From contig NPFB01000004.1 in NCBI GenBank assembly GCA_014084085.1, positions 101,096-165,095 on the forward strand: a DNA stretch of 64,000 nucleotides, read 5' to 3'. The position numbers were made by a program, and so were the translations under genes. The stretch is from Hondaea fermentalgiana. Lineage: Eukaryota > Sar > Bigyra > Thraustochytrida > Thraustochytriidae. Under the pieces are notes generated by a model. That model searched no databases. It was not told the origin of the DNA and worked only from the letters and a program-made list of their open reading frames with translations. Shown in pieces: positions 2,124-19,036 of this stretch. Position 1 is the first letter of the stretch. Each line of letters starts with the position of its first letter.

Positions 2124-3320
2124 CTAGGGAACCGAAACAGCGGCCTTGTTCGAGACCTTTACGAAGCGGTAGTGCGCGACGAACCACTCGTTGCCCGGTC
2201 CATCGCGACCATTGTCGTACTTGAACAGCTCAGAGCAGGCCATGCAGAAAAGACGCCAGGCTTGGTATTTCTCCGAGGCTTTGTCGCCATAGCCTTCCTT
2301 GAAGAATTTGATGAGGTCGCCCCGGTTCGCATCAAGGTTTTCCAGCCAGTGTTCAAGGGTGCGCGAGTAATGCACGCCATTAATTGCCCATCGGCGATCC
2401 ACGCGAAGGTGATCATTGATGAAGAGAAAGAGATCGTACGAGGGCATTGTGCCGCCGGAGAAGAAGTTGTCCGACATCCAGCCGTCTTGAAAGTGATAGG
2501 GGACGTCGCGATGGCAAAAGACGTGGACCATGACCTTGCCATCATCCTTGAGCCATTTTGACATGTTTTTGAAGAGCATCCAGTAGTTTTTGACGTGCTC
2601 GAGCATCTCGATACTGCAGATGCGGTCAAAGGACGCTTCGGGAAGATCGAGATCGTTGACGTCGCAGGTCCTGATCTCGACATTGGAGAGACCGTGTTCC
2701 TTGGCGCGTGCCATGATGAACTCGCGTTGAGAGTTCGAGTGCGAGACACCGATGACCTTGAGGTTGGGAAAGTGCTTTCCAATATACAGGCTGAGCGAGC
2801 CCCATCCGCAGCCCAGGTCCAGAACATCGGCGCCGTCGGGGAGGGCGGCAAGTTCTGCGCGCTCGCAAAAGAGCGCGAGCGCGTGGTCCTCGGCCTCGGC
2901 GAGCGTCGTCTTTGCGTCCGGGTACTGGCAGCACGAGTACTTCATTTGAGGACCCATCTTTTTGATGAAAAAGTCGGCGGGGACCTCGTAGTGCTGCTCT
3001 GCTGAGGCATCGGTTTGCTCGGCAATGCCTCGGGTCTTGAGGTCTTGCACAAAGGCGTCAATGTAGTCTGCCTGCTGCTCCTGGTCTCCGTGGAAAGTGA
3101 CGGTGTTGATGGTCGACGCCAGGAGCTTGCGCATGCCGAGGCGGACGACTCGATCCGGCATGTACCCCTTTTCGATCATGGGAAGGAGCGCCGGCTGCAC
3201 GACATCGTTCACAAGTTTGTCCATGACGGTCTGGTTCCCCTCGCCCTTTTCTCGCAGCGCTGCGGCCTTGCTCACGGACTTGCTCTCCTCGGCCATCGAG
3301 CCTTCTTCGTGCAGCGCCAT
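2124..3320 (-). CDS. SAM-dependent methyltransferase, coclaurine N-methyltransferase-like / CFA superfamily
   Basis: 398 residues, ATG start, no intron. The SAM-binding motif I VLDLGCGWGSLSLYIG lies at about 166-181, preceded by the superfamily's YSCC motif at about 128-131. Further on are SIEMLEHVKNYWMLFKN and GGTMPSYDLFLF. The C-terminal half (HYSRTLEHWLENLDANR, WRLFCMACSELFKYDNG, EWFVAHYRFVK) matches the layout of the (S)-coclaurine N-methyltransferase-like branch of the cyclopropane-fatty-acid-synthase superfamily, which occurs in plants and many algae. No signal peptide or membrane helix is seen, so it is probably cytosolic. In plants the family N-methylates benzylisoquinoline alkaloids; in protists the substrate is unknown and could be an amine or a lipid. 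It is divergently arranged with a true CFA-synthase fusion gene starting at 5575, which makes a lipid-related role worth considering. Confidence 0.88.
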   Translation of the reverse strand: MALHEEGSMAEESKSVSKAAALREKGEGNQTVMDKLVNDVVQPALLPMIEKGYMPDRVVRLGMRKLLASTINTVTFHGDQEQQADYIDAFVQDLKTRGIAEQTDASAEQHYEVPADFFIKKMGPQMKYSCCQYPDAKTTLAEAEDHALALFCERAELAALPDGADVLDLGCGWGSLSLYIGKHFPNLKVIGVSHSNSQREFIMARAKEHGLSNVEIRTCDVNDLDLPEASFDRICSIEMLEHVKNYWMLFKNMSKWLKDDGKVMVHVFCHRDVPYHFQDGWMSDNFFSGGTMPSYDLFLFINDHLRVDRRWAINGVHYSRTLEHWLENLDANRGDLIKFFKEGYGDKASEKYQAWRLFCMACSELFKYDNGRDGPGNEWFVAHYRFVKVSNKAAVSVP

Positions 3321-5574: not shown

Positions 5575-8500
5575 ATGACCTCGGAGCAGGAACAGAGGAC
5601 ACAGAATGTGGCCGTCGTGGGCTCCGGCATCGCAGGGCTCGCGAGCGCGCTCTGCCTGGCCCAGCAAGGATGCAAGGTGACTCTCTTTGAGCGCGAAGAC
5701 CGCCTCGGCGGACACTCGCTCACGTTCCCGGGCGAAGGCGACAGGCCGCCCGTGGATCTCGGATTCCAGGTCATGAACAACACAACCTATCCGTACCTGA
5801 CAAGCCTCTTTGACTCGCTCGGCGTTGATACCGAGCCGTCCGACATGTCTTTCGCCTTTAGCGTGGACGACGGACGCGTCGAGTGGAGCTCGGACGCGCT
5901 CTTTGCCCAGCCGGGCAACGCGCGCGACCCGGCATTCCTCTACATGCTGCGAGAGATCTTTCGCTTCGCGAACGCCACCGAGGTTCTTGATGAGAACAAA
6001 AAGGAAGAGTTCGACACGATGACTCTCGGCGAGTACCTTGATTTGCGCGGATACAGCGAGCGTTTCCGCTCAGACTACATTCTCCCCACCACTGCCGCCA
6101 TCTGGAGCGTGCCGAATGGCACAATGGAGCAGCACCCAGTCAAGCCACTTGTTGCGTTCATGGCCAATCATCATCTCCTCGCCCCGCTTGGAGAACGCCC
6201 TCGATGGCGCGTCGTTGCCCAGCGCAGCGAAGCCTACGTCGACGCCATCGCCAAGGAACTTGAGCGCCTCGGTGCTTCGATCCAGCTTGAGGCCGCGGTC
6301 AAGGCCGTGCGTCTCAACAAGAACCATGGAAACGAAGCCAAAAGTGGCGGCTGCCGAATTACCTTCGAGCAAAAGGGCAAAGAGGATGCCGAGGCGAATT
6401 TTGACCATGTCATCCTCGCCTCGCATTCCGATGTCAGCGCACGCATCCTTGGCGATGGCGACGCAGAGGCACCGTATACCGACCTCGTAAAGCGCGTTCG
6501 CTACCAGCCGAACCGGGTCATCCTGCACTCGGATGTCTCACAAATGCCCCGAGAGCGCGCGGCGTGGGCTTCCTGGAATGTCCTCGACAAGCGCGCGAGT
6601 CCTGATGCAGAGGGATCCCGACCTTCGCAGAACTCACGCGACATTTGCGTCACCTACTGGCTTAACCACCTGCAGAATCTGCCAGAGTCAGCACCGCTTT
6701 TGCTCTGCACACTCAACCCAATCTCCGAGCCTGACGCCGACAAGGTCATTTTCGAGACAACCTTGGACCATCCCGTCTTTGACACCGCGGCGATGGATGC
6801 CCAACGACAAATCAACAAGGCTCAGGCACAAGCCGATGCGGGTTCTCGCTCCCTATGGTTTGCTGGCGCCTGGCTTGGGTCGGGCTTCCACGAGGACGGC
6901 ATTCGCTCTGCCCTCGCCGTCTGTAAGGCGCTTGCCGGCTCGGTCCCGCGCTGGGCCGTACAAGTCGGGGCACCCGAGCATCCGGGTCTGCAGCTCATTC
7001 GCGGCCCTAGCCCTAGCAAGTCTGTAAGCCAGCGACTTGGCCTTCAGGTCTTCCAGGCCGTTGCGTCGCGAGGCATCAAGCGTGGCCACCTCGTCATGAT
7101 GCTCCCGGACGGTAATGATCTCCATTTTGGACGTGAATCTGCTGCTGATGCCAAGAGCCGTGGCGAGCCCACCGTGCGGATGCGCATTCAGGATCTCGGG
7201 ATGCTCGCCAAATGCGTCGCCGAGTCCGACATTGGCCTTGGCGAGGCCTACATGCATCGCATGTTCGACGTCGACGATCTGCCTTCGCTCTTCGATGTTC
7301 TCATCGTCAACAACCAAACGCTTCGCGAGACCCTTAACCCGCTTGGTCTTTCTGCAAACTCGGGTCTCGCCTCCTTTGCTGGGGCTGTCATGTACTGCAT
7401 CGGCAACATCGTCGAGCACATTCGTCATCTTGGCAACGACAACACCGTCACTGGATCGCGCCGCAACATCGAGGCACACTATGACGCGGGAAACAGCATG
7501 TACAAGCTCTTTCTCGATGACACACTTACGTATTCGTGTGGTCTCCATAGACGCGAGTACGGCGCAGAAAATGCTGCACCGGGCGAGGAGCTTCCGCTGT
7601 ACGAAGCGCAGCTGGCCAAGCTCGACAGCATCATTCGCAAGGCCGACTTGAAGTCTTCGGACCATGTTCTCGAGATCGGCTGCGGCTGGGGGTCGTTCGC
7701 CATCCGCGCAGCGAGCACAGTCGGCTGCAGGGTTACCGGTATCACCATCTCCACCGAGCAGCTCGCCGAGGCCCAGGCACGCGTTCGTGCCGCGGGACTC
7801 GAGGACAAGGTGAATCTCATGATTTTTGATTACCGCAAAATGGGCGTGCCGCAGCGGACCCGAGCGCAAGCTGGCAAAAAGAACACGGGAGGCGAGACTT
7901 TTTACGAGCAAGACCTGGCGCCCGGACACTTTGACAAGATCGTCTCCATTGAAATGCTCGAAGCGGTTGGTCATGACCACTTGCCCGAGTACTTTGAGAC
8001 CGTTGATCGCATGCTCAAGCCCGGAGGCCGCGCTGTGATCCAGGTTATCTCCATCAAGGACGACCGCTACGAAGAGTATCGACGCACCTCGGATTTCATT
8101 CGGCGATACATTTTCCCTGGAGGCCACATGCCTTGCGAGGCTTCCATTCGCTGGGCATCCGAGGAAACCGACCTCCTCCTTGGCAACGTAGACGACATCG
8201 GACCCGACTACGCTGTTACGCTGCGTATGTGGCGCGAGAACTTTGTCAAGAATCGAGATGCCATCCTCGCTTTGGGCTACCCCGAGACTTTTTTTCGTTG
8301 CTTCGAAATGTACTTTGCGTACTGCGAGGCAGGCTTTGCTCAAAAGTACATTCACAACTACCATCTCACCTTTACAAAGGACGAAAAGGCCAAGTCCGCA
8401 GTGCGGGCAGAGGAACGCGAGGCCGAGAGTGCTGCGCGGTACAACCGGACGGTCATTCCGGCTGTCTTGGCCATCATGGCACTGATTGCGAGCCTTTCGC

Positions 8501-10788
8501 TGACCCTCAACCCGTTAATTCGCGAGGTCATGTCCATTCTGTGCAGTGCCCTGCTCTTCACCTCACTCATTGGCGACTTTTTGCCACGCATCAACCCCGC
8601 CATGGACACAACCTCGCGCCGAGCCACACGTTTTGGAAAGCTCGTCGGGGTTCGTCTTGCGATTTCGCTCTCCATGTGTGTCATTGTGGCCGGTCTCATC
8701 GCCTTCCATGAGGTCCTGTACACAACACGACTTGCCGGTAGCGATGCCTACATGTCTTTTGATGCCGAAAACGTGAACAGCGAGATCGTCGCCGATGACA
8801 CGGGCTTTGTCAACAATCTCTCTGAAGGCCCAGCACCTGTCCTTCACTTTTGCAACTGGCAAAGCGCAGAGTCTTCTTGCCAGCGACCTGCAAACGCTGT
8901 CGCTGCTGCAGTGAGCACGGGAGTCGCTGAAGCCACGGGGAAGCTCTATGTGCGAAGCCCGATGCATTTTGTGGTTGGCTGTCTGGCGTTTGCGTCCGTG
9001 TCTCGCTTTTTGCTCGAACGCAATTTGATGAACGCTCTGCACGCACTCGCATTAATGATGCTGAGTGTGCTTTCGCTTTCGTCGAATGCGAAAATGTCCA
9101 CCTCGGCGCTCGGCCTCGCCATTGTTCATGGTGCCAGCGAGCTGCACGCCTCTATTAGCGCTGCGCGTACCTTGCTAGGACTCCGGGGCCTCATGTGGAA
9201 TGATAGTCTTTACCGCCGTGCTTGGAGCATTGACATTTCCAGCATGCTGATCATCCGCTGGGTTCCCGTGCCGGTGCTTTTGTCTCCGGTCATTCTCCGT
9301 GCGCCGTGGCCTGTTTTGCTTGCCATTTGCATGATTGCCGTTCGAGAGACTTCGGTGCTCATCGACACACTTCTCGCTTTGAAAGAGGATTACGAGAACC
9401 GCCTCAACGCAGCTGACCTCTTGGACCAGGCGCGCAACCGTGACGAGATCGTCAACGCCATGGTCGGTGAGAAAGCACGTCGCAACGAGGCTGCTGCTAA
9501 TGCTGATGCTAATGCTACTGCTTCCGTGGCACTTCGTACGTGATGAATCGACCTCAAGTGCGCACCTCGCACCTCGTTCCCATGTCGCTCGATAGTTCGC
9601 CAAAGAAAACTGCTTGGACAACTAACATTTTTGCTTCTTTTTACCCTTCTCAACATATGGCCGGCCTCCTTGTCTGCCCGCCCTTCATCTGCACGCTCTG
9701 ATTTACCTTTCAACTCACTCGCAGGTTCTGGAATTTACCATGGAACACTCTATCACCAGCGCAACAAGGTTGAAGGCGCTTCCCCAGCTCGGCACGCTTT
9801 CAAGTACAACGTTTGGATGGCCTTGGTGAATCTGGATGAGGTGAAACGAGGCGAAGCCTTTGACGACACGCAATTTATCAGCGCTAATCGTGCGAATATC
9901 TTTTCGTGGTGCCGCAAGGATCACTTTGTAGGAACCCAAGGAGTTGCTCAGCCACTTGATGAGTGCGTGCGGGATCTCGTCAAGGAGCGGACCGGGCGCG
10001 CCGTTTCCGCCAATGGCTCTGTGCTCCTACTTACCAACATTCGTTGCTTTGGATTTTCTTTCAATCCCGTTTCCGTGTACTACTGTCTCAATGCCTCAGG
10101 GACGGCTCTAGAAGCCGCCGTGCTCGAAGTTTCCAACACGCCTTGGTTACAGAAGCGAATGTACGTCCTTCCCTTCTTCGACGACGACGACGACGACTGC
10201 AAGCACAAAGACGACTTGAATGAAAAGAAACGTGTGTGGCGCTCCAAGTGGAAGAAGGACTTCCACGTGAGTCCCTTTTTCGACGTTTTCTTCAATTATG
10301 AGTGGGTTCTCAACCTTCCCCGGGAACACATCAACATCCGTGCTCTCAGCACCCGGCGAGATCCGGAGACAGACGGCGCAGACGAAGCTCCTGCGCGCAA
10401 AGACGAGCCGTGGACACAAGTGGTCGGCACGGCCCCAACTGATCTTTTGCAAAAGAGAAACGCTTCAGAGCAAGGTGACGAGGAGTCGGAGTCTCGTACA
10501 TTTATTGTCAACCTCAACCTGCAGCGAGCTTCGGCTAGCGAGCGATGGCGCCAACTGCTTCACCAGCCGCTCATGACTTTTTCCATCGTCCTGTACATTC
10601 ACGTGCACGCCTTTATTGTGATGGTTCGCAAGGGCTGCGCGCAAAAGTTGACGCCGCGAAACGCTCCGGGTCTCGGCCTCGGAGACGCCGCGCGACATTT
10701 ACTTATCTTCACAATTGCAGGTCTCGCAGGCATCTGGCGCATTCTAACAGCACCATTTGTCAAGACGCGGGCGCAAGCCCGGGTCTAG
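5575..10788 (+). CDS. FAD oxidase / cyclopropane-fatty-acid synthase / multi-TM / DUF1365 fusion, two exons
   Basis: Proposed as one gene: exon 1 5575-9535, intron 9536-9724, exon 2 9725-10788, 1674 residues. Residues 1-460 are an FAD-dependent amine-oxidase-like domain (VAVVGSGIAGLASALCLAQQG, then RLGGHS). Residues about 490-930 are a CFA synthase with its N-terminal extension: YSCGL (Cys655), VLEIGCGWGSFAI (about 698), SIEMLEAVG (Glu796) and the plant-type segment YRRTSDFIRRYIFPGG. FAD-oxidase/CFA fusions are known from plants; they transfer a methylene from SAM to acyl chains of membrane lipids. Residues about 950-1300 add several hydrophobic helices. Exon 2 encodes DUF1365 (SGIYHGTLYHQR, CFGFSFNPVSVYYC, VLEVSNTPW, FHVSPFF). 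The intron has GTACGT at its 5' end, a CTAAC branch-like motif and CTCGCAG; splicing joins the frames exactly. The exon-2 frame has no ATG before the DUF1365 domain, which argues against a separate gene. Confidence 0.85.
9536..9724 (+). other. Predicted GT-AG intron joining CFA-synthase and DUF1365 exons
   Basis: 189 nt. The donor GTACGTGA overlaps the apparent exon-1 stop codon. A CTAAC motif lies at about 9626 and pyrimidine-rich sequence precedes the acceptor CTCGCAG. The split codon C|GT restores Arg and continues into SGIYHGTLYH, the conserved start of DUF1365. Confidence 0.75.
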
Positions 10789-11817: not shown

Positions 11818-12984
11818 ATGGTGGTGGCAGAGGCGGAGCGCGAGAAGGAGCGCGGCAACTCGCTGCTGCGCGAAGGCAAGAAGGACGAGGCCGCGGAAGC
11901 GTACTCGGCGGCGATCGAGCTCGACGGGTCGAACCACGTGTATTTCTCGAACAGAGCCCACGTGTACAACCTGTTGGGCGACTTTCCCAGCGCGCTCGCC
12001 GATGCGAACCGGTGCGTCGAGCTCAAGCCAGACTGGGCAAAGGGCTACAACCGCCTCGCGATGGCCTTTCAAGGCCTTGGCGATCAAAAGAAATACGAGG
12101 ATGCACTTGCCAAGTGGCGCGAGCTCGGCGGCGCGCCTGCTGCGACGAGGTCATCGGGGACCTCGGCGGCCTCGGCGACGGCATCGGGCCCCAGCAGCTT
12201 GCCTGACATGCTCTCCAAAGTACAGCTCGGACTTCGCGTCTTTCTCGTACTCAACTTTGCACTCTATGTCTTTCCTCTGACGTCTTCGTATGGAGCCTTT
12301 CAACGCGCGCTCTTCTCTGCGTGCGGAGTCTACATGATTCACCTTTACCGCGTGCACGGGAGACCGGTGCGTACACAAGCGTACGCCCAGCGTATTGTCA
12401 CAGATTATCGTTCCCACTACGCCATGGCGGCAATGCTCTTCGCTTTTAGTGGGTCTGGCCGCTTGATCGCCTTGATGCCGCACCTGCTCAGTGAGATTGG
12501 GTATGTTGCAGACTACGTGCTCACTGCCCAACCGCAGATTGCCGCGCAGCTTGCTCCGCCCCTCAACACTCATGTGTTGCCCCGTTTCACGCAGACTCCG
12601 CCGGAGCAATGGGCCAGTCTTGATCTGCGTTCCAAGTGGCAGCGTTACAACCAGGTCTCGATGCACTACGCAGCAAGTCTCGAAGTGGCGATTGGCCTTG
12701 GTCTCATCGTGGAGCTCGTCACGCCAAGCCGTAGCTTTTTGGTTCTCTTTGCGTACTGGCACTTTTTGCGTATTCGTTACATGGTTTCTGACGACATCAA
12801 GCAAACTTTTCGGGCGCTCGACACCAAGATCGCCAGCTATGCATCTCGAAACGCTACTGCAATGAACCTTTACGGAAAGATCCGCACATTTGCAGGGTCA
12901 ATGGTGCAGATGCCTTCCCAGGGTCAGCCAGCGCCGGGCGCAGGGGGGCTCGCTGGTCTCGCCTCGCGATGCACCATTTCTTAG
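11818..12984 (+). CDS. TPR domain fused to TMEM33/Pom33-type membrane protein
   Basis: 388 residues, single exon. Residues 1-110 form three TPR-type helix pairs of the Hsp70/Hsp90 co-chaperone kind (EREKERGNSLLREGKKDEAAEAYSAAI is split over positions 7-33; then YFSNRAHVYNLLGDF and GYNRLAMAFQGLGD). A Ser/Ala/Thr linker follows to about residue 145. The C-terminal 240 residues have about four hydrophobic segments and the TMEM33/Pom33 hallmark LFAYWHFLRIRYMVSDD followed by a charged helix. TMEM33/Pom33 proteins are ER and nuclear-envelope tetraspanning proteins that help shape ER tubules and position nuclear pores. A TPR front end is not part of the usual animal or yeast protein; it could recruit a chaperone or a C-terminal EEVD-type ligand to the ER membrane. 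Confidence 0.82.
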   Translation: MVVAEAEREKERGNSLLREGKKDEAAEAYSAAIELDGSNHVYFSNRAHVYNLLGDFPSALADANRCVELKPDWAKGYNRLAMAFQGLGDQKKYEDALAKWRELGGAPAATRSSGTSAASATASGPSSLPDMLSKVQLGLRVFLVLNFALYVFPLTSSYGAFQRALFSACGVYMIHLYRVHGRPVRTQAYAQRIVTDYRSHYAMAAMLFAFSGSGRLIALMPHLLSEIGYVADYVLTAQPQIAAQLAPPLNTHVLPRFTQTPPEQWASLDLRSKWQRYNQVSMHYAASLEVAIGLGLIVELVTPSRSFLVLFAYWHFLRIRYMVSDDIKQTFRALDTKIASYASRNATAMNLYGKIRTFAGSMVQMPSQGQPAPGAGGLAGLASRCTIS

Positions 12985-17044: not shown

Positions 17045-19036
17045 ATGGGTTCTGCTTTGGGCGTATTCCGCGACGATCATGAACTCAAGGTGGCCGCGCT
17101 GCGAAAGACGCCCTTCTTCGTGCTGTTCTCCGATGAACAACTTGCAGGAATTGCCAAGTACTTCAAGTATGAACATCTAAAAGAAGGCGCACTGCTTGGC
17201 TCGCAGGCCATGGTCGTGGTCGTTGAGGGCGAACTCGCAGTGTCGACCCTCGTGCCACAACAAGGCGACAAGAAGAATAAGGCGCAAGTTTCGGAGCGCC
17301 TTTGCGTGAAAGGCCCTGGTGACTTTTTCAGTCGTCCATCACGCGAACTTGTCCGCGGGCGTGGCTCCTTTCGAGGAGACGTGAACTCGAAAGAGGCGTC
17401 GGCCGTCAAGATTGTTGAGGCCTTTGATTTCACGACAATTCGCGCCATTGTCGACACCAAGATTCTCAAGCTTGAGCAAAAGGCAATGGACGCCTACCTC
17501 GCCACACAAGGGGCTGCGGATGCGGGCTTGCTGCAAACCGTTTTGTCGACAGATATCCGCAAACTTCTGAAGAACGTTCCCTTTTTGCGCCAGCTTGAAC
17601 CTTCGAAATTAACTTCTCTGGCCGAGATGTTTGTCTTTGAGGCTTTTGAAGCCGGCTACGAGGTGATCAAAGAGGGCGACGTGGACGACGATTCGTACCT
17701 GCTTCTTGCGGGCGAGCTGGAAGCGACCGCAAAGGTTCACCACGAAAAATCGCTCGTGCGAGGAAGTGTACAGACTGCCATTGAACCACCCTCGAGCGGA
17801 GAAGCTCCAATGAAAACAGATGAAAAAGAAGAAGCACCGACTGAAGTAGCATCTAAAGGCGATGCGGATGCGAATGAGGAAAGATTTGTGCTGGGTGGAA
17901 ATGGGCCTTCCGGTCTGCGTACAGGCAGCGAGGCACCAATGACCAAAAAGGTGCCGATGTTAAAACCGGCTCCTTCTATGCGACTCTTGCGGAAAAGCTC
18001 GAATCTTATCAAGCCGCAGGGAGACACAGTATCCTTGGGTAAGGTTGCGCCAGGCTCGTACTTTGGTGAGATGTCCCTCATGGTGCGTATTCCTCGAACA
18101 GCGTCAGTAACCGCGTCAGAAAAGTGTCTGGTTGCAAAGATTCGCGGAAAAGACTTCCACAAAGTACTCCAGCTTACACCAGATGTATTGCGCGCTTTCG
18201 ATCAACATGCCAAGGAACGCATGGTGCGAAAATTGTATGCATTTAGGCTTCCCTTTTTCGCTGGGATCGAACGGGAAAAAATCATGTCTCTTGCATCACT
18301 TTTTGAGATCAACCAATTCAAGGAGAACGATGTGATCATGCGCGAAAAGGAAGTTTCGGGCAAGTTGCACATTCTCATCAATGGTGAAGTTAACGTTTCG
18401 CGCGATGGGGAAGCGCTCGTTCGTCTGTCCGAGGGCTCGTATTTCGGGGAAATAAGTATCCTCACGGACAGGCCGCATCTTGCGACTGTTTCTGCCAACA
18501 CAGCGTGCGTAACGCTGAGCATTGGCAAGGAAAAGTTTGGTTCCCTTTTTGCAGACTCTCCGAACATGAGCGCTGAGTTTCAGATGCGCCTGCTGGGTCC
18601 TCGGGAGATCGAGCTCCAGCACGTTTTGCGTCACACCTTGGGGCTTGATCTCTTTACGCAGCATCTCGAGACGGAGTATACGCGTGAGCACCTTGACTTT
18701 TACTTTGCGGTTATGGCGTTCCGTGCGGGCGAGGAGGGTGCGCTCACTGCTACGGATATCAAGCAAAAGTACATTGGGCCCGAATCAGAGACCCCTGTGA
18801 ATGTGTCTGCCTCCATGTCACAAGCTGTTTTGGATGCCGAGGAGGGTCTTGACATGTTCAATGCGGCGCACGACGAAGTGTATGCTCTCATGAAGCGCGA
18901 CAACTTTGAGCGTTTCAAGAAGTCACCTCTTTATGATGAGCTCATGGAAGCAATCCAATGCTATACGAGTGTGGACCTCAATATCGACGAAGCTGCATCA
19001 ACGAGAGCAGATTTTCTGGCGATGTTCGATGCCTAA
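17045..19036 (+). CDS. Tandem cyclic-nucleotide-binding domains plus C-terminal RGS domain
   Basis: 663 residues, no intron. Three CNB modules can be traced. The first (about 20-145) is degenerate. The second (about 165-385) carries a 90-residue charged insertion (about 240-325) before its phosphate-binding cassette GSYFGEMSLMVRIPRTASV. The third (about 395-505) has GSYFGEISILTDRPHLATV. The phosphate-contacting Arg is kept in CNB2 (PRTAS) but is His in CNB3 (PHLAT), so CNB3 may not bind cAMP or cGMP. Residues about 520-640 match an RGS domain: LFTQHLETEYTREHLDFYFA, a conserved vNVS segment, and ALMKRDNFERFKKSPLYDEL. RGS domains speed GTP hydrolysis by G-alpha subunits. The protein could therefore couple cyclic-nucleotide levels to G-protein shut-off. 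No kinase domain is present, so it is not a PKA/PKG enzyme. Confidence 0.85.
   Translation: MGSALGVFRDDHELKVAALRKTPFFVLFSDEQLAGIAKYFKYEHLKEGALLGSQAMVVVVEGELAVSTLVPQQGDKKNKAQVSERLCVKGPGDFFSRPSRELVRGRGSFRGDVNSKEASAVKIVEAFDFTTIRAIVDTKILKLEQKAMDAYLATQGAADAGLLQTVLSTDIRKLLKNVPFLRQLEPSKLTSLAEMFVFEAFEAGYEVIKEGDVDDDSYLLLAGELEATAKVHHEKSLVRGSVQTAIEPPSSGEAPMKTDEKEEAPTEVASKGDADANEERFVLGGNGPSGLRTGSEAPMTKKVPMLKPAPSMRLLRKSSNLIKPQGDTVSLGKVAPGSYFGEMSLMVRIPRTASVTASEKCLVAKIRGKDFHKVLQLTPDVLRAFDQHAKERMVRKLYAFRLPFFAGIEREKIMSLASLFEINQFKENDVIMREKEVSGKLHILINGEVNVSRDGEALVRLSEGSYFGEISILTDRPHLATVSANTACVTLSIGKEKFGSLFADSPNMSAEFQMRLLGPREIELQHVLRHTLGLDLFTQHLETEYTREHLDFYFAVMAFRAGEEGALTATDIKQKYIGPESETPVNVSASMSQAVLDAEEGLDMFNAAHDEVYALMKRDNFERFKKSPLYDELMEAIQCYTSVDLNIDEAASTRADFLAMFDA

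What the first reader, a model, noticed from the sequence alone, without database searches (positions are those of the whole stretch)
5575..10788. Four-part lipid enzyme: FAD oxidase, CFA synthase, multi-TM and DUF1365 joined by one intron
Seen: the CFA-synthase ORF stops at a GTACGTGA donor. 189 nt later, after CTCGCAG, the DUF1365 core begins in frame (R-SGIYHGTLYH). The DUF1365 frame has no ATG upstream of the domain. Known: in bacteria, FAD amine-oxidase-like, DUF1365 and CFA-type methyltransferase proteins are often encoded side by side, and plants fuse only the first with CFA synthase. Inference: this gene collapses the bacterial neighbourhood into one 1674-residue membrane protein, placing DUF1365, a domain with no settled biochemical role, in the same polypeptide as the methyl-transfer step.
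Basis: partly seen in the sequence, partly recalled or inferred. Interest (0 to 1): 0.82.

Follow-up and report, generated by a model that had tools for sequence, protein, structure and literature searches.

The report
Fused furan-fatty-acid enzyme of a thraustochytrid
One gene of a marine protist appears to carry, in a single protein, relatives of all three enzymes that bacteria use to turn membrane fatty acids into furan fatty acids, and a gene next to it looks like the enzyme for the step after that.

Summary
Joining 5575-9535 to 9725-10788 across a 189-nt GT-AG intron gives one 1674-aa frame: FAD oxidase, CFA-type methyltransferase, membrane region, DUF1365. The organism is Hondaea fermentalgiana, judged by a 100% protein match. 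A transcript-derived protein of another eukaryote (P0006, 1586 aa) has the same parts in one frame. The deposited Hondaea protein (P0001) also reaches DUF1365, but with another intron that deletes 148 residues, three of them identical in 73 of 73 aligned relatives.

DUF1365 has a tested role: it is the domain of UfaO, which closes the furan ring in Rhodobacter (PMC7380195, passages). The three soluble parts match UfaD, UfaM and UfaO. Of 71 bacterial loci showing both FAD and CFA genes, 69 also show DUF1365. The membrane part models as TLC-like (ceramide-synthase fold). A divergent gene at 2124-3320 belongs to the family of FufM, which adds the second methyl.

Best reading: a single-chain furan-fatty-acid synthase with a linked FufM. 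The chemistry is inferred; no RNA or lipid data of this species were available. New variant of a known kind.

The parts
5575..9535 (+). Exon 1 of the fusion gene: FAD part, methyltransferase part, membrane region
   Evidence: open frame; Pfam
5575..6984 (+). UfaD-like FAD oxidase/desaturase part (residues 1-470)
   Evidence: Pfam Amino_oxidase 4.7e-21; nearest solved structure the amine oxidase LkcE, E 5.4e-23; GxGxxG (G16, G18, G21) and GFHEDG (437-442) invariant in the 15-sequence alignment A1
7255..8409 (+). UfaM-like CFA-family methyltransferase part (residues 561-945)
   Evidence: Pfam CMAS 1.1e-71; Q at 823 as in 80 of 80 ufa-locus CFA ORFs, where two other CFA-family proteins have H
8410..9534 (+). 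Membrane region, TLC-like by model (residues 946-1320)
9536..9724 (+). Intron, 189 nt, GT-AG (alternative in-phase donor at 9467)
   Evidence: homology to P0006 and P0007 on both sides
9725..10788 (+). Exon 2: UfaO-like DUF1365 part, then a hydrophobic C-terminal helix, to the stop
   Evidence: Pfam DUF1365 4.7e-49; 44% identity to P0006 over 345 aa; model pLDDT 80.7, pTM 0.82
2124..3320 (-). FufM-family methyltransferase, 398 aa, divergent; its ATG lies 2254 bases from the ATG of the fusion gene

Best explanation
The gene encodes a single-chain, membrane-bound furan-fatty-acid synthase: UfaD, UfaM, a TLC-like membrane domain and UfaO in one polypeptide. The likely order, taken from the Rhodobacter pathway, is: the UfaM part methylates a double bond of a lipid-bound monoenoic acyl chain with SAM; the UfaD part desaturates it to a methylated conjugated diene; the UfaO (DUF1365) part inserts one oxygen from O2 and closes the methylfuran ring. 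The separate FufM-family enzyme, encoded head to head 2.25 kb away, would then add the second methyl. The TLC-like region probably anchors the three soluble parts at the membrane and may hold the acyl chain. Shown here: one open frame with these domains, the same fusion in a transcript-derived protein, family relationship of each part, conserved residues, bacterial co-location. Inferred: the splice in vivo, each activity, the substrate, the role of the TLC-like part, and that FufM acts with it.
For: Domains and frame. Same four parts in one frame in P0006, an MMETSP 'type:complete' transcript ORF, 44% identical over 99% of the query; P0007 also runs into DUF1365 before it ends. The stretch between the two competing acceptors (residues 1321-1440) is 51% identical to P0006. 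Function of the bacterial counterparts: ufaM, ufaD and ufaO suffice for the monomethyl furan acid; UfaO works in vitro with O2; FufM adds the second methyl (PMC7380195, passages). Gene neighbourhood: 69 of the 71 loci with FAD and CFA in view also have DUF1365, and 32 of 80 loci have a FufM-family gene (> 130 bits) within the fetched flank. Conserved positions: H1331, R1333, P1435, N1458, K1498, S1503, P1504, I1612 and A1616 identical in 73 of 73 UfaO rows; Q823 and I825 in 80 of 80 bacterial and 22 of 22 eukaryotic UfaM rows. In the CFA-part tree the 18 eukaryotic rows form one side of a branch (SH-aLRT 97), and rooted on three other CFA-family genes they fall among the ufa-locus genes. Only one DUF1365 match in the own genome. 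Chlamydomonas CFA1, CFA2 (elsewhere listed as a coclaurine N-methyltransferase) and a DUF1365 gene are all SAK1-dependent singlet-oxygen genes (PMC4067076, passages), as the Rhodobacter pathway is tied to singlet oxygen (PMC8491031, passages).
Against: No RNA or lipid data of this species. P0002-P0005, close relatives of 1273-1322 aa, stop before DUF1365; I read them as ORF calls cut at the intron, as the window's own ORF would be, but could not fetch their contigs. The deposited model uses another intron. A search with the DUF1365 part alone found only P0001. DUF1365 and the CFA part are distant from the bacterial proteins (UfaO 32% to the Rhodopseudomonas protein). The positions E793, E796 and A797 are not independent support, because one of the two scan patterns contains them. 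In the three library papers holding 'furan fatty acid' and 'thraustochytri', the passages I saw in two report no furan acid from a thraustochytrid; the third I saw only in the listing. The FufM-family gene is closer to coclaurine N-methyltransferase (E 7.2e-65) than to CFA synthases (best 3.2e-27) among solved structures.
Confidence: 0.75

Rival explanations
1. Same fusion gene, other product: a cyclopropane or mid-chain methyl-branched acyl lipid is made, and DUF1365 modifies it in some other way or is a binding module.
For: The methyltransferase part is in the CFA family, and its nearest solved structures are CFA synthases. Plant proteins with an FAD part plus a CFA part are known as cyclopropane synthases (recalled, not tested here). 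FAD-CFA-membrane proteins without DUF1365 exist in Chlorella and others, so the first three parts can occur without it.
Against: NCBIfam CFA-synthase models are far below their cut-offs (235.5 of 600; 212.9 of 400). Residue 823 is Q, as in all 80 ufa-locus genes, while two other CFA-family proteins have H; that plant cyclopropane synthases lack Q was not checked. DUF1365 is present and its invariant residues are kept.
Confidence: 0.15
2. Two adjacent genes: exon 1 is a complete UfaD-UfaM-membrane protein, and DUF1365 is a separate gene or an occasional splice or read-through product.
For: Exon 1 is open to its own stop; P0002-P0005 end near the same point; Arabidopsis keeps UfaO separate (PMC10940516, passages).
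Against: P0006 and P0007 run on into DUF1365; the DUF1365 frame has no ATG of its own before the domain; the deposited annotation also joins them.
Confidence: 0.05
3. The deposited protein (1526 aa, 'Sphingolipid C9-methyltransferase', intron 9467-10099) is right, so DUF1365 is only a C-terminal remnant without activity.
For: It is the database model, and both its splice sites are GT-AG.
Against: It removes 148 residues: the part that is 51% identical to P0006 and three residues identical in 73 of 73 rows. Its name fits another gene better: the CFA-family frame on contig C14 (resemblance to fungal sphingolipid C9-methyltransferases is recalled, not tested).
Confidence: 0.05

Closest known systems
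Bacterial furan-fatty-acid pathway UfaM, UfaD, UfaO of Rhodobacter sphaeroides and Rhodopseudomonas palustris
   Same: The same three families; in bacteria FAD, DUF1365 and CFA genes lie side by side
   Different: Separate proteins there; here one chain with a membrane domain between UfaM and UfaO, and UfaO last
Arabidopsis AtUFAMD1 (AT3G23510), AtUFAO1 (AT1G30130), AtFUFM1/LIME1 (AT4G33110)
   Same: UfaD-UfaM fusion in a eukaryote, with UfaO and FufM relatives in the same organism (PMC10940516, passages)
   Different: UfaO is a separate protein there; the plant proteins are found on lipid droplets
Green-algal and other eukaryotic FAD-CFA-membrane proteins (P0008-P0025, e.g. Micractinium, Chlorella, Guillardia)
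   Same: First two parts plus a hydrophobic tail; in the Micractinium protein P0008 the tail gives a sub-threshold TLC match
   Different: No DUF1365 in these records; the tail is not alignable to the window's by BLAST
Bacterial DUF1365-CFA fusions (L003, L005, L021, L022, L046, L052)
   Same: UfaO and UfaM in one chain
   Different: Order reversed (DUF1365 first), no FAD part and no membrane region in the chain
FufM, second methyltransferase of Rhodopseudomonas palustris
   Same: Gene 2124-3320 is 43% identical over residues 44-392 to the family member in Rhodopseudomonas pseudopalustris
   Different: In another clade of the family; the family also holds plant N-methyltransferases

Membership tests
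Ufa furan-fatty-acid pathway | FAD amine-oxidase-like protein of the UfaD kind | tested here: met
   Finds the FAD gene of the ufa loci, including Rhodopseudomonas pseudopalustris L033 (279 bits); Pfam Amino_oxidase
Ufa furan-fatty-acid pathway | CFA-family methyltransferase of the UfaM kind | tested here: met
   Tree with 80 ufa-locus CFA rows and Q823/I825; quick tree with long-branched outgroups
Ufa furan-fatty-acid pathway | DUF1365 protein of the UfaO kind | tested here: met
   Pfam 167.6 bits against a cut-off of 25; nine positions identical in 73 of 73 rows; other DUF1365 kinds outside ufa loci were not sampled
Ufa furan-fatty-acid pathway | Makes a methylated furan fatty acid from an 18:1 chain, O2 and SAM | not testable with these tools
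   Needs lipid analysis or enzyme assays
FufM | Sequence family of FufM | tested here: met
   43% identity to the Rhodopseudomonas pseudopalustris protein; same family tree as 31 ufa-linked genes. The published FufM sequence itself was not in hand
FufM | Methylates a monomethyl furan acid and not an alkaloid or a plain 18:1 chain | not testable with these tools
   The nearest solved structures are plant N-methyltransferases
Canonical cyclopropane fatty acid synthase (NCBIfam equivalogs) | Score over the curated cut-off | tested here: not met
   235.5 of 600, 212.9 of 400, 183.8 of 650 bits
Canonical cyclopropane fatty acid synthase | Histidine at the position of residue 823 (role in bicarbonate binding recalled) | tested here: not met
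   Q in the window; H in the two other CFA-family proteins compared
TLC domain (PF03798) | Profile match over the cut-off | tested here: not met
   No Pfam family for the window's region at E <= 1; hence 'TLC-like', not a TLC member
TLC domain (PF03798) | Ceramide-synthase-like fold | tested here: inconclusive
   [not shown]

The most novel reading that the evidence does not exclude
A eukaryote carries out the whole route from a membrane monoene to a monomethyl furan acid on one polypeptide, with the acyl chain kept in or passed along a ceramide-synthase-like membrane barrel between the methyltransferase/desaturase and the oxygenase, and with FufM encoded next door to finish the dimethyl furan acids of the kind found in fish oil. 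The DUF1365 oxygenase would be a lipocalin/nitrobindin-like barrel, possibly a haem enzyme.
Probability: 0.25. Interest if true: 0.82.

Novelty: new variant of a known kind. Interest (0 to 1): 0.62.

Why it matters
Furan fatty acids are reported from fish, algae, plants and bacteria, and only the bacterial enzymes have been tested in the papers I could see. A single gene that should make them in an oil-producing marine protist turns the question of their eukaryotic source into a one-gene expression test. The fusion also links DUF1365 to the methyltransferase and the desaturase by covalent bond, which supports UfaO as the general role of at least this branch of DUF1365, and it gives an enzyme in which hand-over of an unstable diene between active sites can be studied. 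It also corrects a public protein record that lacks 148 residues and bears a doubtful name.

Tried and rejected
Search with residues 1321-1674 of the joined protein for other large DUF1365 fusions: only P0001 came back out of 3344 candidates. The search needs shared 5-residue words and missed even P0006, so it says nothing about how widespread the fusion is.

The loci are therefore chosen for FAD or CFA likeness; DUF1365 and FufM were not selected for. Of the 80, nine show no DUF1365 hit: in seven of them no FAD ORF was in view either (L002, L007, L023, L051, L064, L076, L080), and two have FAD and CFA side by side without it (L036, L042). Gene order in the 69 loci: 61 FAD-DUF1365-CFA; six have DUF1365 and CFA in one ORF; the remaining two (L011, L012) differ only in ORF starts that reach far upstream, as I read.

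Membrane region: no Pfam family at E <= 1, no ufa-locus ORF matched it (0 of 80 loci), and BLAST found no match to P0008, P0016 or P0020. Foldseek found nothing at E <= 0.001. The TLC-like call rests on the VIA alignment and on the sub-threshold TLC match of P0008's tail (18.5 bits, cut-off 24.6).

One search failed (frame error) and was run again correctly. Paper searches for furan acids with thraustochytrids, eukaryotes, fusion or UfaO listed no paper on this fusion; the library holds open-licence papers only, and one search showed 12 of 1,472 papers.
Full report
Anatomy. The joined frame 5575-9535 + 9725-10788 encodes 1674 aa. Pfam places Amino_oxidase at 19-295, CMAS over 781-929 as best stretch (two stretches), and DUF1365 at 1324-1624. 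Between residues 946 and 1320 lies a hydrophobic region without a Pfam family. In the intron, both in-frame TGA codons (9541, 9544) close exon 1, and no ATG in the DUF1365 frame precedes the domain.

Whose genome. P0001, from NCBI, UniRef and EukProt, is named 'Sphingolipid C9-methyltransferase [Hondaea fermentalgiana]' and is 100% identical over 78% of the query; the taxonomy copy puts Hondaea in Thraustochytriidae. The window is contig C162 of a 36.0-Mb assembly with 238 contigs.

Is the fusion real? By part it is 55% (FAD), 57% (linker plus CFA), 24% over 217 aa (membrane) and 44% (DUF1365) identical to the window. P0007, of 1364 aa, runs 89 aligned residues into DUF1365 at 51% and then ends. 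Three of the 28 listed proteins carry DUF1365 (P0001, P0006, P0007). P0002-P0005 (72-53% identical) lack it. P0002 ends '..TAART', much as the unspliced window frame ends '..VALRT', so I think their frames were cut at the same intron; their contigs could not be fetched.

The deposited intron. P0001 fits exactly one GT-AG intron in the range tried, 9467-10099, 633 nt. It leaves out residues 1299-1446. Of these, residues 1321-1440 are 51% identical to P0006, and H1331, R1333 and P1435 are identical in 73 of 73 rows (71 ufa-locus ORFs, the window, P0006). The donor may be 9536 or, in the same phase, 9467.

What the parts are. Passages of PMC7380195 state that ufaM, ufaD and ufaO suffice for the monomethyl furan acid; that loss of ufaO leaves the methylated diene; that recombinant UfaO with 18O2 puts the label into the ring; that UfaO contains DUF1365; and that FufM adds a second methyl. 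In bacterial genomes the best 80 loci were read for ORFs: 71 have FAD (> 100 bits) and CFA (> 150 bits) in view; 69 of these 71 also have DUF1365; 32 of 80 have a FufM-family ORF (> 130 bits). L033, Rhodopseudomonas pseudopalustris DSM 123, close to the tested R. palustris, has the three genes in a row. Six loci fuse DUF1365 in front of CFA, and an older domain survey lists DUF1365-OMT in Desulfococcus oleovorans (PMC2613160, one passage).

UfaM rather than CFA synthase. Residue 823 is Q in 80 of 80 ufa-locus ORFs and 22 of 22 eukaryotic proteins compared (of the 26 related proteins, P0001, P0014, P0019 and P0026 were left out), but H in the two other CFA-family proteins, L097 and L098. E793, E796 and A797 show the same split but lie in a scan pattern, so for the bacterial loci they do not count. 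NCBIfam CFA models are far below their cut-offs. In a quick tree of 101 rows the 18 eukaryotic rows form one side of a branch (SH-aLRT 97), which speaks for one origin; the three outgroup rows are long-branched.

The neighbour. The 398-aa protein at 2124-3320(-) is 43% identical (residues 44-392) to a protein of the Rhodopseudomonas pseudopalustris genome and lies in one family with 31 ufa-linked genes, though not in the Rhodopseudomonas clade. The closest relatives are P0030 (82%) and P0031 (64%). P0031 and the fusion relative P0003 each list two contigs with a longest of 301,552 bases, so they may lie on one contig; that is an inference. Against it: solved plant coclaurine N-methyltransferase is the best structural-library match.

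Context in other eukaryotes. Arabidopsis has UfaD-UfaM fused and UfaO and FufM relatives separate, all on lipid droplets (PMC10940516, passages; UFAO1 on droplets confirmed in PMC12712439, passages). In Chlamydomonas, CFA1, CFA2 and a DUF1365 gene need SAK1 for induction by singlet oxygen; CFA2 is listed elsewhere in the same paper as coclaurine N-methyltransferase (PMC4067076, passages). Furan acids are said to be known from Isochrysis and Phaeodactylum (PMC7922858, passages). Thraustochytrids are already known for another pathway in one chain, the trifunctional crtIBY gene (PMC10016063, abstract start and passages), so this would be a second such case.

Verdict. The category is a new variant of a known kind: known enzymes in a new, single-chain architecture with an added membrane domain. 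No paper on this fusion turned up in the searches named above, but the sequence itself is already in public databases under another name.

Noticed in passing
L003, L005, L021, L022, L046, L052: Bacterial ORFs in which DUF1365 (UfaO) is fused in front of the CFA-type methyltransferase: a second, differently ordered fusion in this pathway.
   Followed up: partly
P0016, P0017, P0022, P0024: Eukaryotic FAD-CFA proteins of 1396-1595 aa that carry a Pfam TLC domain; in P0016 and P0022 it lies at the very C-terminus after a long hydrophobic stretch.
   Followed up: partly
[not shown]
   Followed up: partly
G000:C14:396611-397393 (L082): The strongest CFA-family match in the own genome lies elsewhere, in a 476-aa frame; it may be the real sphingolipid C9-methyltransferase whose name the fusion protein bears in databases (recalled resemblance).
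   Followed up: no
window 11818-12984 (+): TPR repeats joined to a TMEM33/Pom33 domain in one 388-aa frame.
   Followed up: no
window 17045-19036 (+): Three cyclic-nucleotide-binding matches followed by an RGS domain in one 663-aa frame.
   Followed up: no
L036 and L042: Loci with the FAD and CFA genes side by side but no DUF1365 between them, so the pair can occur without UfaO.
   Followed up: no
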